DNA from: Bolinopsis microptera
Lineage: Eukaryota > Ctenophora > Tentaculata > Lobata > Bolinopsidae
Assembly (NCBI RefSeq): GCF_026151205.1
Contig: NC_087084.1
Span: forward strand, 10,257,453-10,321,452
Direction: 5' to 3'
DNA length: 64,000 nt
In this document: positions 33,310 through 39,064 of the stretch, piece by piece
Layout of the letters: each line of letters starts with the position of its first letter
Position numbering within the stretch: position 1 is the first letter of the stretch
Translations under genes and position numbers: made by a program
The notes under the pieces: model-generated
What the model was told of the DNA's origin: nothing
Seen by the model: the letters and a program-made list of their open reading frames with translations, nothing else
The model's database searches: none

Positions 33310-36300
33310 TTATTTCTTAGTAAAAACGACGGGTTTTGGCTGATTTTTATCTGTCATTGTCATTTTTTTCTCTACCATAGATTTTAAATCAGCAATTTTT
33401 TCTTTATTTTTCAACGCTCTCTCCAAATCAAGAGTCAACTGCTCTTTGTCTGCCACCAAAGATTTGTTTTCTTGGCCAAGTTTCTTAACACTAGCTGATA
33501 AGTTCAAGAGTTCCGTTTTGAATTTTGATATCTGTTGATCCCTTTTCTTGATGCTCTCCACTAAGTAGCTTGAAGGCTGGTTTGAGTGATGCAGAGCTGA
33601 TTGCAACTCCTCACAAGTTCTCAGTGTCTTTTCTAGAACACGACTTTTAGCAGCGAGACTTTCTTTCAGCAGTTCGTTGTTCTTGGATAGTTCAACCAAC
33701 TTTCTAGCAAGATGCTCTTTGTTACAAGAGATATTTTCGCTTCCCAAAACCTGAATCAGATCTTTGATACCCTCATCTCCGATTTTCAGAGTTGATAACT
33801 CATTTTGAAGTGTGCGAACTTTTAGAGTCAGTGTGTTGACTTCGTTCACATGATCACATCTGTTTGAGTTGTATTCATCCAACAAAACCTCAAGTTTCTT
33901 AGCTATCTTATCATTTTCCTTAGCGCTTCCGTTGTATTTCCCGCTCACTTCACCGTAGAGCAGATTAATTCTCTCCAGCTCAAACTCTTTTAGTTTTAAC
34001 GTGTTCTTAATCTCCGCGAGTTTGGTGTTTGTGACAGTTTGGTAAGAATGATAGCTTCCGGAGATATCCTCGTATTTGTCTTGTAGGTCGCGGTTTTTGC
34101 GGAGCGCATCGTTACGGTCACTGACTGCTGCTTCGCGACTGTCGATTAGTAATTGCTTTTCTCGTTCGTACACCTTGGAATGTATTTTGTTAATTAAAAG
34201 AGGGAATTCCAAAATGTGAGTGCTACTATGAGGAGTTATCAACAAATCAAATTATTTACACATACATAATGTGTAATATGGGACTTAATCTAATTGAATA
34301 TATATATATGCAACACCACATACTGCTCCAGAAAAAATACTAATCAGAATTCAGAGTACTGTAAAATATTCCCAGAGTAAAATATGTCTGGAGATAAACA
34401 TACCTGTTGTGCAGTGATGCGGAGATGCTCAATCTCACTTCCTGTTTTCTGTTTTAGCAGATCTATTTCTGTTTGCACTTTCTGTTCGTGTTCATGAGTC
34501 ACACTCTGTCTTACATTCACTAACTCCTCGTACACCTGGTAATTATAAATCAATTTAAAAATGTCAATTAACACTCAATTAAAAGTTAATTTTAAGTCAA
34601 TTAGCAGCGCATTTAACTGAACAACCAATTTTAAAATGTTGATAATTGTTTTGTGAGCTTAGCTATTATTTTAAGCACAAATATTTTGATAATTGTAATT
34701 AGCTGCCAAATTTGAGTATCTGTCATCTGGTAATCTGGTAATTTGTAAAAGACAACACATATAATATTATGTCGAACATTTATTGAAAAGTTCGGAGAGA
34801 TAATAATGACTAAGAAGAGTAATAAACTCTAATAAAAATAATCTAATGAAAATAATCTAATAAAAATAATCTGATAAAAATAATCTAATAAAAATAATCA
34901 ACTGAACAGTGAACAGAGTCCAGTGAATAAGCTGTACTGGACCACTTACCTTATCTCTAGCCCGCTTAGCACTGTTCAACTCCACAGTCAGATTATCAAG
35001 TTTCTCCTCAGTGCGATGTGCTCGTGAGGTTAACTCCGCGTTCTCGCGCGTCAAGTACTGTTTGTCTTGATTTAGCAGCGCTGACTCCTGGCGCAGTGCA
35101 CTGAATGTGGAGTTGTTTTTCTTCTGCTCTTCTGTCAGGGCTGCTACTTCCGCCTGTCAAGAGTTTGTTAAATGTTTCTGTGTCATTGAAGAAATAAATC
35201 GTGTGTGAAATAATATTAACATAATCTTCAGATATAGTGAGTCAATCAACGAGGGTACTAACTTTAAATTTACTAAAAAACATAAACGTTAGTGTATTTT
35301 TGTATTATCAGTAACGGTACATTGTTACTCCTACCTTCAAATAAGTGTTCCCAGTAAGCAACTGTTTGTTTACACTCTCTAACTCTATGTTCTTCGCTAG
35401 CACGTTCTTATAGTTCGCTTTGTGAGCTGAGCAAAAATTTTTGTTACATTCTTGTTACATTTTTGTTTCAGTATGTTACGAATTTAGGGATATCCAAATC
35501 GTGGTGGACCGTGGATGCAGGATATTGATCTGTTGATCATCAAATACATTAATATTATCTGAATTGCATTGAATATTTGGGTAATGACTATGGGTTGAAC
35601 AAGGTGCATGATTTAAGTATTGAATATGAAACATTATTAATTATTATACCTTGTTTAAAAAGTCTAATTATTAAATTTAAATCAAACATGCTTAGGATCA
35701 ATAGAAACACGACAAACATAATTTTACTTCTTAAGGAGTTAAAATAAAAGCAACAAGAATTAATGATTACATGGATTAAGTTGGTGAGTGAGCAAGTCAA
35801 TCTTCTGTCTGAGACTAGAGTTCTCTGTTTCCAACTCAACTTTATTCTGCTTCTCTATTGTCAAATTATTGTCCAATATCTTCACCTAGCGATAAGTAGT
35901 TTAGTGAATAATAACAAAGAAACCGAAGTCACGACATAATGTTACTTTGCTAGTATATTATTGTAATAATGAGCTAACATATTTAGCACCAAGCGCACGA
36001 GTCAACTGTAATTTATTTAAAGGAACAAACTCAGGTCACTATTTGCTACTTAGGATGTTATTGGAGAACACACTTAGTCCTAAGCTCACGAGTCAGCTAT
36101 ATTTTCGCTGAAGACGATATAATACACATTCTCTCATGATCAGTGTGTAACTGTCCATAATGTAAAAGTTGTTATCTCACTCTTGTTTACGCTAATATAA
36201 TGCATTAAATAGGGGTGCAATAACTGGGAGGGAGATAACTATTGTTATCTCCCTGGTCCATCCTTAGTCGCTGAGATGTTGCTAATTATTTTAAAAACAG

Positions 36301-39064
36301 AAAGTGGTATAACTTATGTTCTGATAAATATTTTTGCTTCAAAATTTTACAGAATGTCAATAACAAGTAGTCACCCATTTGTGGCAAGTTTTGTGTGAGT
36401 GTGAGCTTCACTGAGCTTATTTGACCAATTTAAAATAATTAGCAACATCTCAGCGACCTGTAACAATTTTAAGAGATAAGGATGTGTCCTCTAGAAAGTT
36501 TGACTCTGGAATGTTCTATGTAGTAATATTATCGGTCGTTAATTTCCGATGTAAATGCTGCATTCGCTAACATCATTTCGTAGATCATCAGAGAATGCAT
36601 TTACATCACTGCTTATAATATGATAACATGAGTTATATCCCTCGGTCAAACCTCGGGATATAACTCGTTTTATCCAACTCGTCAAACTCGTTGGATAAAA
36701 CTATTTTCACAACTCAAAGTTGTGAAAATAATGTTATCACATTATAAGCAGTGATGTAACTGCTTATTACACAATACACACATCTTTCCTATCATTTACG
36801 CTTCAAGAACCCCCTCCAGCTGGATCCAGGTCAATTTTCGTGTACTATTAAAGATCTAACCTCTTTCTTGGAGATATCATATTGTTCCTGATGAGTCTTC
36901 AGTTTACTGCTCATCTCCTCCAGTCTCTTCTGTAAAGGTAACTGGAACTCGTAGAAGGAAACTTGTATAAGTTCCTTCATTGTCAAAGTCTCCCGTTGCT
37001 TTATCGCCAGGTGTTGGTACTGAGGAGCAGATAGTTCATAGTTGTACTACAATTAATTAGTTAATTAGTTACTACATAGTTAATTAGTTACTACAATAAG
37101 GTGCACTGAAAAAAAAATAGTCATTAAAGTATGCCCTTTGAATTGGCTTATTTTAAAGTGATATTCGAGCCCCGCCCCGACCCCCTAAAGAGTAACATAC
37201 CATAGTACATACCATAGTACATATACCATAGTACATACCATAAGTATCATACTTTACATACCATAGTATCAGTAACATGTACGTTAAGTAAGGTGTTTCT
37301 AATATCAGCTGACTTGACTTGCAAAGAAGGGAGCAGTGTTTCTATCTCTGCTTGTTTTCTTCGTAACATAACAATCTGGTCACTGTTCGCTTCCTGTGTA
37401 ATAGCAACAGTGTGTTAGACTGGCATTTTGTGGTAAATATTGTGGTAAATATTGTGGCAAATGTTGTGGTAAATGTTGTGGTAAATGTTGTGGTAAATGT
37501 TGTGGTAAATGTTGTGGTAATGTGACAATGTAAAATCCGGATTGGAATATTACATATTTATCAGAATTAGAATTAGAATCAAATTTACACAGCAATATTA
37601 CAATAAAAATAGTAAATAATTTAGAGATTTATGAGTCGCATAGTTGAAATGTTTTCTTGGGTAAATTTCTATTGATCCCGTTTGATGCAAGAAGGAAAAG
37701 GTTCTTATCAGGAAAGGAATTACTCAATGAATGTGACAATGATACACTTCTGTGTAATAGTTAGGGTGTGGTCACTACAAGTAATATGTTGGTAGCTATC
37801 TCCAGGGAACAAAGAATGGAACACAGTGTATAGTAGACGGTGGAAATTCTTTACAATGGAATTACAATGGAGTCATCCGCAGACAATATGCAATTCTAAT
37901 TGGCCGCATGGAATATATGATTGAAGAACTGTCGTACATTCTAATTTCTATAGACTGTGCCACAAACTTTCTAAAACGAATCAATTCTATAGTCAAAAGA
38001 CCTGGAAGTGAGCCAACTCCCCACTTGTATCCAGTCGTTTTGTTTTGCCCCATATTATGACACAATGATAGACTAGACAGTTATATACTTTCTAGAAGCT
38101 AAGATGCTTTATGTGAATAAAGCCTACCTAATAATACCATAATATAATACCAACACTTGATTTAGCAATATAGAAACCTCAAGATACAACCAATAATAAT
38201 CAATGCGCTGATTCTGAAAGCCTGGGTTACCTTTTATACAAAAATCACCGTTATATGGTTAAACGAATCCGAAGTAAAAGGAACTGTTTCGATGCAAAAA
38301 AACATCTAGAGTCTAAACTAACCTGAGCAGTTTTGAGTTCCTTACTGTGCTGATCAAGTGCACTGTTTAATTTGAACTGCACGACTTGATGCGCATGGCG
38401 CGCAGAATGTAGCTGCTCTTCCAGCTCCTCTGCACGAGATTCGTACTGTGCTCTTGTGTCCTGGAGTGGTAGTGAGTCACAATCTTAAATATTTTAAAAC
38501 TTTTTAATTCTGAATAAATTCTAATTATTAATGTTTTTTAGCAGGTTATTTAAACTTCTCCCACAAACGACCAACTAGCCTGGCTCAACAACAACTAAAT
38601 ACCATTATCTGCTGATGTTTCTGTGCTATCTCTATCTTCATCATCTCACACTGGTGTACCAGCTGCTGCTTCTCAATGATAGTGCGCGCATGTTCCGGGT
38701 TTGACTCGTTCGCTAACGTGTTTGATAGCACACTGTGGGAAGGATACAATGTTATGGTTTAATTCTGTAGTTAGTACTAGTTACTTTACGTACTACTAGT
38801 TACTTTACATACTATCATAGCTTTATTCGTTATGTGAAGTTGCTGTAAATCTATCTACTCTATAGAGGTTAAACTTAATGGTAAATAACAGATAGTCCAA
38901 TTTAAATAATACTTTATCACAACATGATTCCAATCAGATCAACTAAAGATTCCTTATAATTGGAAACCATTCCAATATATCCAGTAAATATTAACTAAAC
39001 AATACCTAAGTGAAGTAGAGAGGTCTGTGGATGAGGCGTCAGTAGTAAAAGTAGTGCTGTTCAT
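33310..39064 (-). CDS. PIBF1: PIBF1/CEP90 (progesterone-induced blocking factor 1-like) coiled-coil protein, 10 exons, 676 aa
   Basis: In animals PIBF1/CEP90 is a centriolar-satellite and distal-appendage protein needed for ciliogenesis and spindle poles. Exons: 39064-39006 (ATG 39064), 38732-38603, 38460-38323, 37393-37283, 37046-36861, 35885-35771, 35426-35335, 35153-34950, 34535-34404 and 34173-33310. The lengths sum to 2,031 nt and all junctions are GT-AG and in phase. The whole product is heptad-rich coiled coil. Landmarks are colinear with the family: an early LVHQCEMMKIEIAQKHQQIM; VSFYEFQLPLQKRLEEMSSK; ESALLNQDKQYLTRENAEL; VYEREKQLLIDSREAAVSDR; SYLVESIKKRDQQISKFK near the end; and a C-terminal VVFTKK. 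The family is usually about 750 residues, so this is slightly short. The intron between exons 35885 and 36861 carries two large palindromes. CPT2 lies upstream on the same strand. Confidence 0.93.
36230..36253. repeat. perfect 10-bp hairpin
   Basis: gggagataac and gttatctccc are separated by tatt, inside the PIBF1 intron and next to a larger palindrome. Confidence 0.85.
36267..36457. repeat. perfect 29-bp inverted repeat with 133-bp loop
   Basis: The left arm 36267-36295 (starting gtcgctgagatgttgctaat) and right arm 36429-36457 are exact reverse complements. The loop has no obvious second set of stems. The structure could be a MITE, but I could not find convincing target duplications. Confidence 0.9.
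36601..36759. repeat. perfect cloverleaf (four-way junction) inverted repeat
   Basis: Outer stem: 36601-36629 pairs with 36731-36759 (29 bp, one mismatch that would be a wobble). Inside it, three hairpins abut without a spare base. Hairpin 1 pairs 36630-36641 (gagttatatccc) with 36655-36666. Hairpin 2 pairs 36667-36678 (gttttatccaac) with 36690-36701. Hairpin 3 pairs 36702-36714 (tattttcacaact) with 36718-36730. The loops are 13, 11 and 3 nt, and the first two share tcaaac. Allowing two mismatches, the outer stem extends to 36597-36763. It lies in a PIBF1 intron. Confidence 0.93.
37430..37520. repeat. gtggtaaatgtt tandem repeat
   Basis: About seven copies of a 12-bp unit, gtggtaaatgtt, just upstream of PIBF1 exon 37393-37283, in an intron. 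The minus frame reads repeated QHLP and is not coding. Confidence 0.85.

What the first reader, a model, noticed from the sequence alone, without database searches (positions are those of the whole stretch)
36601..36759. A 159-bp sequence that folds as a gapless four-way junction (cloverleaf)
Four inverted-repeat stems (29, 12, 12 and 13 bp) account for every base except three small loops. The three inner hairpins abut one another and the outer stem with zero junction nucleotides. The first two loops share tcaaac flanked by tcg/ctc. Chance cannot plausibly produce this. As a DNA cruciform it is a ready-made Holliday junction; as RNA (it lies in a PIBF1 intron) it is a tRNA-like fold. A likely reading is a mobile or resolvase-processed element that spreads as a hairpin, comparable in spirit to the double-hairpin elements of fungal and sponge mitochondria, but with three arms. 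I know of no named family with this layout.
Basis: partly seen in the sequence, partly recalled or inferred. Interest (0 to 1): 0.85.

Follow-up and report, generated by a model that had tools for sequence, protein, structure and literature searches.

The report
Cloverleaf tail of a jumping element
The cloverleaf is the folded tail of a small repeated jumping DNA element, and beside it lies a mirror copy of the element's own two ends joined together, which may help the element close into a circle when it copies itself.

Summary
The 159-bp cloverleaf is real (stems of 29 with one mismatch, 12, 12 and 13 bp; z about -18). It is not free-standing: it is the 3' terminus of a non-coding transposon of about 639 bp (window 36128-36766) with dozens of copies, eight of them with an identical cloverleaf at different sites. 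The element inserts without target duplication (two tandem-repeat sites), at a shared motif TAA-N5-A^NTA, and has a 14-bp asymmetric inverted repeat whose 3' copy lies beside the hairpin. That is Helitron2/Helentron-like (rolling-circle) anatomy. The insertion site and spacing differ from the published descriptions, the 3' hairpin has become a four-way junction, and no RepHel partner with these ends was found.

The most interesting result: a 47-nt block (36583-36629), the 3' inverted repeat plus the 5' arm of the cloverleaf, is an inverted copy of the element's own 3'-end|5'-end junction (44 of 47 aligned letters match, one 2-nt gap). In single-stranded form it could pair with both termini and set the two cut sites side by side, like a splint. 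This is inferred. Copies without the block exist at eight other sites; one further such copy is a deletion in place.

The parts
36128..36766 (+). whole element, ATTCTCTC...CTGCTTA, 639 bp (one A at either edge cannot be assigned to element or target)
   Evidence: limits of similarity between copies; 17 of 20 first loci show this 5' end and 19 of 20 this 3' end
36120..36122 (+). TAA of the left target motif (-9 to -7)
   Evidence: T 28, A 38, A 31 of 40 independent left flanks; window letters
36128..36141 (+). 5' asymmetric inverted repeat ATTCTCTCATGATC
36583..36596 (+). 3' copy of the asymmetric inverted repeat (13 of 14 pairs), 4 nt before the cloverleaf
36583..36629 (-). inverted copy of the element's own 3'-end|5'-end junction (possible splint)
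   Evidence: 44 of 47 aligned letters match, one 2-nt gap, score 77; 500 shuffles mean 16.7, maximum 33
36601..36629 (+). outer stem, 5' arm
36630..36666 (+). arm 1
36667..36701 (+). arm 2
36702..36730 (+). arm 3
36731..36759 (+). outer stem, 3' arm
36745..36766 (+). alternative terminal hairpin TAAGCAGT-GATGTA-ACTGCTTA, exclusive with the outer stem
   Evidence: fold; 6-bp core letters intact in 46 of 54 independent 3' ends
36767..36769 (+). right flank TTA (consensus NTA)
   Evidence: +2 T 53 of 54, +3 A 40 of 54
36259..36484 (.). probable nested insert with perfect 29-bp inverted repeats (36267-36295, 36429-36457); not needed for the main claim

Best explanation
The cloverleaf is the enlarged 3'-terminal hairpin of a non-autonomous rolling-circle transposon that resembles Helitron2/Helentron (HINE) elements. 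A transposase supplied in trans, presumably an HUH-type Rep protein, would nick after TAA-N5-A at the 5' end, release the strand, cut again after CTGCTTA at the 3' end and join it at a target with the same motif (A^NTA), leaving no duplication. Shown from sequence: the boundaries, insertion without duplication at two sites, the shared junction motif, the asymmetric inverted repeat, the alternative terminal hairpin and the inverted junction copy. Inferred: that a Rep protein does it; that in the single strand the junction copy pairs with both termini and places the two cut sites side by side for circle closure (splint, about 0.35 likely), with the short terminal hairpin as the competing state. 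The three arms are most likely extra sequence in the loop of that hairpin, since they are lost and altered in copies at other sites.
For: Fixed ends and divergent flanks. Joined flanks of L008 and L029 restore the host tandem period exactly, and dropping 1-3 bases on either side lowers it. Motif counts in 40 left and 54 right independent flanks; the element's own 3' end GTAACTGCTTA fits the motif with one base more in the spacer. ATIR of 13/14 with its 3' copy next to the hairpin, as defined for Helitron2 (PMC3627910, passages). ATIR pair 7 is T-A in 26 loci and C-G at 3 sites of an older lineage. Junction copy. Plus-strand folds: ATIR mean pairing probability at least 0.55 in 12 of 13 copies with a value, of 16 given; outer stem 0.95. 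Eight identical cloverleaves at different sites. RepHel-type domains are present in the genome.
Against: No RepHel has these ends: 3' sides at nine of 41 PF14214 matches show neither end motif, and none of 41 PF14214 or 40 PIF1 matches lies within 35 kb of any of the 55 exact 3' ends. Target is not TT or TTTT^T/C. The 3' ATIR is 170 bp from the 3' end, not 20-60. Eight independent sites hold copies without the 3' ATIR. L066/L067 break ATIR pair 7 and L020 gives a pairing probability of 0.02; no shuffled control was run for those folds. In Helraiser, a Helitron1, the 3' palindrome is not needed for circles (PMC4778049, passages).
Confidence: 0.7

Rival explanations
1. A circle-integrating element of another class (tyrosine recombinase, Crypton-like, or folded single-strand recombination as in integron cassettes): a circle recombines at TAA-spacer sites, leaving a variable spacer on the left and a fixed one (CTGCTT) on the right.
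For: TAA plus a 5-6 nt spacer occurs in the left flanks and in the element's 3' end; no target duplication; folded 3' end.
Against: The spacer is always variable on the left and fixed on the right, as expected for one-strand transfer; the ATIR beside a 3' hairpin matches Helitron2. No recombinase family was searched for.
Confidence: 0.15
2. The cloverleaf and the junction copy are by-products: palindromes built up by template switching and inversion during replication of a rolling-circle element, with no function in transposition.
For: Arms are truncated or altered in many copies; eight sites lack the 3' ATIR; stem changes are few and could come from templated repair; tandem copies of the 3' end occur in L054 and L065.
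Against: The junction copy is kept in two lineages with matched change at ATIR pair 7; covariation score 0.074 against 0.038 in shuffles, 0 of 500 reaching it.
Confidence: 0.4
3. A cut-and-paste foldback element or MITE.
For: Large inverted repeat; short non-coding copies.
Against: The two ends are not inverted copies of each other at the termini; no target duplication.
Confidence: 0.04
4. A structured non-coding RNA gene or tRNA-like element that spreads as the 159 bases alone.
For: Very strong fold; many copies.
Against: Embedded in a larger unit with fixed ends; no Rfam match; copies without it exist.
Confidence: 0.03

Closest known systems
Helitron2 non-autonomous elements (PMC3627910, passages)
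   Same: Asymmetric inverted repeat starting 0-2 bp from the 5' end, its 3' copy immediately upstream of the 3' hairpin; short non-coding copies (657 and 673 bp); no target duplication in those; compensatory changes between the repeats noted there; pairing of the two repeats proposed there to set the replication endpoint.
   Different: There: 3' repeat 20-30 bp from the 3' end, a 5' hairpin, insertion between TTTT and T/C. Here: 170 bp, a four-way junction as hairpin, insertion A^NTA, and a hairpin arm that with the repeat reads as one inverted copy of the joined ends.
Helentron/HINE, including DINE-1 (PMC4067079, passages; oyster HINEs PMC7492417, passages)
   Same: subTIRs, palindrome at the 3' end, no target duplication, non-coding copies, tandem repeats inside some copies.
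   Different: There: 3' subTIR 38-60 bp and palindrome 8-35 bp from the 3' end, palindromes of 5-10 bp, TT insertion. RepHel partner not found here.
Canonical Helitron / Helraiser (PMC4778049, PMC5876387, passages)
   Same: 3' hairpin acting as terminator; plus-strand end-to-end junction circles as intermediates.
   Different: 5'-TC, CTRR-3', A^T target and no ATIR there; its palindrome is not required for circle formation.
IS200/IS605 single-strand transposons (recalled, not from a call)
   Same: Parts of terminal hairpins pair with the cleavage sites; target motif flanks the 5' end; no target duplication.
   Different: Bacterial; short guide sequences, not an inverted copy of the end junction.

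Membership tests
Helitron2/Helentron (HINE) | no target site duplication | tested here: met
   L008 and L029, host tandem period restored
Helitron2/Helentron (HINE) | asymmetric inverted repeat, 5' copy at or within a few nt of the 5' end | tested here: met
   14 nt, 13 pairs
Helitron2/Helentron (HINE) | 3' copy immediately upstream of the 3' hairpin | tested here: met
   4 nt before the outer stem
Helitron2/Helentron (HINE) | 3' copy 20-30 bp (Helitron2) or 38-60 bp (HINE) from the 3' end | tested here: not met
   170 bp in the window copy
Helitron2/Helentron (HINE) | insertion TTTT^T/C or within TT | tested here: not met
   A^NTA with TAA at -9 to -7
Helitron2/Helentron (HINE) | 5' hairpin overlapping the 5' repeat (Helitron2) | tested here: inconclusive
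   only a weak imperfect hairpin in the window copy's MFE fold
Helitron2/Helentron (HINE) | RepHel-coding partner with the same ends | tested here: inconclusive
   not found at nine of 41 matches examined, nor near any exact 3' end; the assembly has gaps and lists are lower bounds
canonical Helitron (Helitron1) | 5'-TC and CTRR-3' ends, A^T target | tested here: not met
   element ends (A)TTCTC...CTGCTTA; canonical Helitrons in the same genome show CTAG ends
MITE / cut-and-paste DNA transposon | terminal inverted repeats at both ends and a target duplication | tested here: not met

The most novel reading that the evidence does not exclude
The element carries an inverted copy of its own end-to-end junction, beside and inside its 3' hairpin, that works as an intramolecular DNA splint: it pairs with both termini of the single strand, abuts the two nick sites and promotes circle closure, with the short terminal hairpin as the alternative (stop) state. 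If general, this would explain why Helitron2/Helentron elements have an asymmetric inverted repeat placed directly beside a 3' hairpin.
Probability: 0.3. Interest if true: 0.8.

Novelty: new variant of a known kind. Interest (0 to 1): 0.55.

Why it matters
Why rolling-circle transposons of the Helitron2/Helentron group have an asymmetric inverted repeat next to a 3' hairpin has, in what I read, only a tentative explanation: pairing of the two repeats marking the endpoint (PMC3627910, passages). An element in which the repeat and the hairpin arm read as one inverted copy of the joined ends suggests a concrete, testable function (splinting the two ends) and offers natural variants with and without it. 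It also shows a terminal hairpin that can carry a four-way junction and still be spread recently: eight identical cloverleaves at different sites.

Tried and rejected
Rejected: free-standing cloverleaf element (flanks conserved beyond it); structured RNA (no Rfam match); target duplication (one search listed a 44-bp direct repeat at L008, which is a host tandem repeat); canonical Helitron; carriage by viruses (0 exact matches to the 21-nt 3' end in viral contigs). Inverted-arm isomer: I first read L068 as inverted arms (notes). One search shows the normal orientation; I had taken the wrong end, and L068 is the one +2 exception among 54. L031 does have its 3' repeat and cloverleaf in the opposite orientation.

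Partner search: 3' sides at nine RepHel places, in clusters C and D and A and B; the D end is unclear, and the 5' end of cluster C was not reached. Eight orphan 3' ends with about 5 kb: the six listed ORFs of 150 aa or more did not look like RepHel by eye, and I ran no family search on them. Longer relatives: no partner recognised by eye; these were not listed for ORFs. L083, about 3.1 kb, has no ORF of 150 aa.

Rows dropped: alignment A1 used 23 of the 30 distinct cloverleaf sequences plus L053; left out were L023, L026, L032, L037, L043, L062 and L068 (truncated, rearranged or mis-called). Its structure came from the window copy, so the percentage paired leans towards it. 'Further pair types' did not exceed shuffles (436 of 500 reached it), and 7 of 500 reached the number of pairs changed on both sides. 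One search was given 16 copies and 13 returned a value. collapses 77 and 50 ends, re-fetched and same-site copies included, to 54 and 40 by a threshold of my own. In the pattern searches the reversed controls were high with up to 3 mismatches (35 against 134; 159 against 206), so I rely on exact matches there. The output was cut, and L041-L046 were not seen in it.

Print searches for this layout. None of their listings shows a cloverleaf 3' end or an inverted end-junction copy in a Helitron. I saw listings, plus passages of PMC5148889, PMC4067079, PMC5876387, PMC7492417, PMC4778049 and PMC3627910; no whole paper and no supplements.

Full report
Observation. At 36601-36759 there are four stems with no junction nucleotides: an outer stem of 29 positions with one mismatch, arms of 12, 12 and 13 bp, loops of 13, 11 and 3 nt. 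RNA and DNA folding give z-scores of -18.1 and -19.0 with 0 of 200 shuffles as good. No Rfam family reaches its cut-off in the window.

It is repeated. A DNA search of the window's own genome (264.7 Mb, 232 contigs, unnamed) scored 40 of 59 candidates. Eight copies, the window's included, are identical over all 159 bases, and the others scored reach down to 80%; counts are lower bounds. A second search with an older-lineage copy scored 40 of 69 candidates. The 3' end GCAGTGATGTAACTGCTTA occurs exactly 55 times and the 5' end TTCTCTCATGATCAGTGTG 32 times (the reversed controls in those calls are for up to 3 mismatches and are high). Two inner patterns are cleaner: 64 places against 0 for the reversed control and 47 against 0.

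The unit is larger than the cloverleaf. Copies run from ATTCTCTC (36128) to CTGCTTA (36766) and diverge outside; 17 of the first 20 loci show the 5' end, 19 of 20 the 3' end and 16 both. Inside lies a probable nested insert (about 36259-36484) with perfect 29-bp inverted repeats. A copy of 150 bp (L034) lacks both the insert and the cloverleaf, and it sits in the same flanks as a full copy (L012), so one of the two forms arose in place, most simply by deletion.

Insertion. In L008 and L029 the host DNA is a tandem repeat (43 and 22 bp). Joining the two flanks restores the period; dropping one to three bases on either side lowers it. So there is no target duplication, apart from one A that cannot be assigned. 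Among 40 independent left flanks: A at -1 in 40, A at -8 in 38, A at -7 in 31, T at -9 in 28. Among 54 independent right flanks: T at +2 in 53, A at +3 in 40. The one +2 exception is L068, where I had taken the wrong end. The element's own 3' end, GTAACTGCTTA, fits nearly the same motif: TAA, six bases instead of five, A. Donor ends and target thus look alike, as expected when one enzyme nicks and joins single strands (inference; recalled from HUH transposons).

Ends. The first 14 nt recur inverted at 36583-36596, 4 nt before the cloverleaf (13 of 14 pairs). This is the asymmetric terminal inverted repeat of Helitron2 (PMC3627910, passages) and resembles the subTIR of Helentrons (PMC4067079, passages). 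Pair 7 is T-A in 26 loci that hold both copies (in L031 the 3' copy is inverted) and C-G at three older-lineage sites (L049+L098, L062, L083/L097), while L066/L067 do not fit. This may be a single lineage event. The last 22 nt can form a small hairpin (8 bp in the window copy); its 6-bp core letters are intact in 46 of 54 independent 3' ends. It uses the bases of the outer stem, so the two are alternatives.

The inverted junction. The 3' inverted repeat plus the 5' arm of the outer stem (36583-36629), read on the other strand, aligns with the sequence made by placing the element's 3' end directly before its 5' end: 44 of 47 aligned letters match, with one 2-nt gap at the joint; score 77 against a mean of 16.7 and a maximum of 33 in 500 shuffles. 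Most of that score is the known 29-bp stem and the 14-nt repeat; what is new is that they lie in the order and orientation of one joined pair of ends. In a DNA fold of the whole plus strand of the window copy, the 5' end pairs with the block at about 0.5-0.66 per base pair and the outer stem at 0.95. Of 16 copies given to the same calculation 13 returned a value; 12 have a mean of 0.55 or more (0.95 in the older-lineage copy) and L020 has 0.02; no shuffled control was run. In that state the two cut sites would lie next to each other across the block. I call this a splint; no experiment supports it yet. In Helraiser, a canonical Helitron, precise end-to-end joints of the plus strand and circles are real intermediates (PMC5876387, passages), but its 3' palindrome is not needed to make circles (PMC4778049, passages).

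The arms. In 24 cloverleaves (23 of 30 distinct plus L053) 94.8% of cells pair (shuffles 92.5). Eight of 66 pairs show two-sided changes (shuffles 5.2; 7 of 500 reach it), in 38 cells against 13.6; the covariation score is 0.074 against 0.038 (0 of 500); further pair types do not exceed shuffles. The changes lie in arm 1 and the inner half of the outer stem and may be few events; templated repair of palindromes could also make them. Copies with two arms (L049) or truncated arms (L027, L032, L056), and copies with other loops (L029, L044), exist. The arms look dispensable.

What moves it. The genome has 41 Helitron_like_N and 40 PIF1 matches. Around nine of these places I read the 3' sides: two clusters diverge at or within a few bases of CTAG, as canonical Helitrons do; two others diverge after other letters, one of them unclear. 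None of the nine pieces holds our end motifs. No PF14214 match lies within 312 kb, and no PIF1 match within 35 kb, of the 55 exact 3' ends. Eight orphan 3' ends have no RepHel-like ORF in the roughly 5 kb read (by eye). The partner is unknown, so the claim that a RepHel moves this element rests on anatomy.

Against. The insertion site and the distance of the 3' inverted repeat fail the published Helitron2/HINE description. Eight independent sites hold copies without the 3' inverted repeat (L029, L030, L041, L050, L052, L053, L059, L064). They may be deletions in place, as in L034, but that is not proved for these eight.

Verdict. A new variant of a known kind: a Helitron2/Helentron-like non-autonomous element whose 3' hairpin has become a four-way junction and which carries an inverted copy of its own end junction. 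It works like Helitron2; membership stays open because two defining features were tested and not met.

Noticed in passing
36259-36484; L013, L017, L020, L097: Probable nested insert with perfect 29-bp inverted repeats; part of it matches in reverse orientation in L013, L017 and L020, and a related stretch lies elsewhere in L097 (by eye).
   Followed up: partly
L065, L054: Tandem direct copies (spacing 30 bp) of the element's 3'-terminal unit: five hits in L065, the last imperfect, and two in L054.
   Followed up: no
L025, L097: A short tandem repeat made of an arm-1-like unit (TATGTAACTCGTTATATAT), suggesting the arms can grow into satellite-like arrays (by eye).
   Followed up: no
L083 (C3:11182239-11187200), L097: Longer relative of about 3.1 kb with the same 5' end type, 3' inverted repeat and 3' terminus but much other DNA between the 3' repeat and the terminus; L097 shares its left flank.
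   Followed up: partly
L078-L082: Canonical Helitrons in the same genome: copies diverge at or within a few bases of CTAG after a GC-rich hairpin; copies are about 96-99% identical near the 3' end.
   Followed up: no
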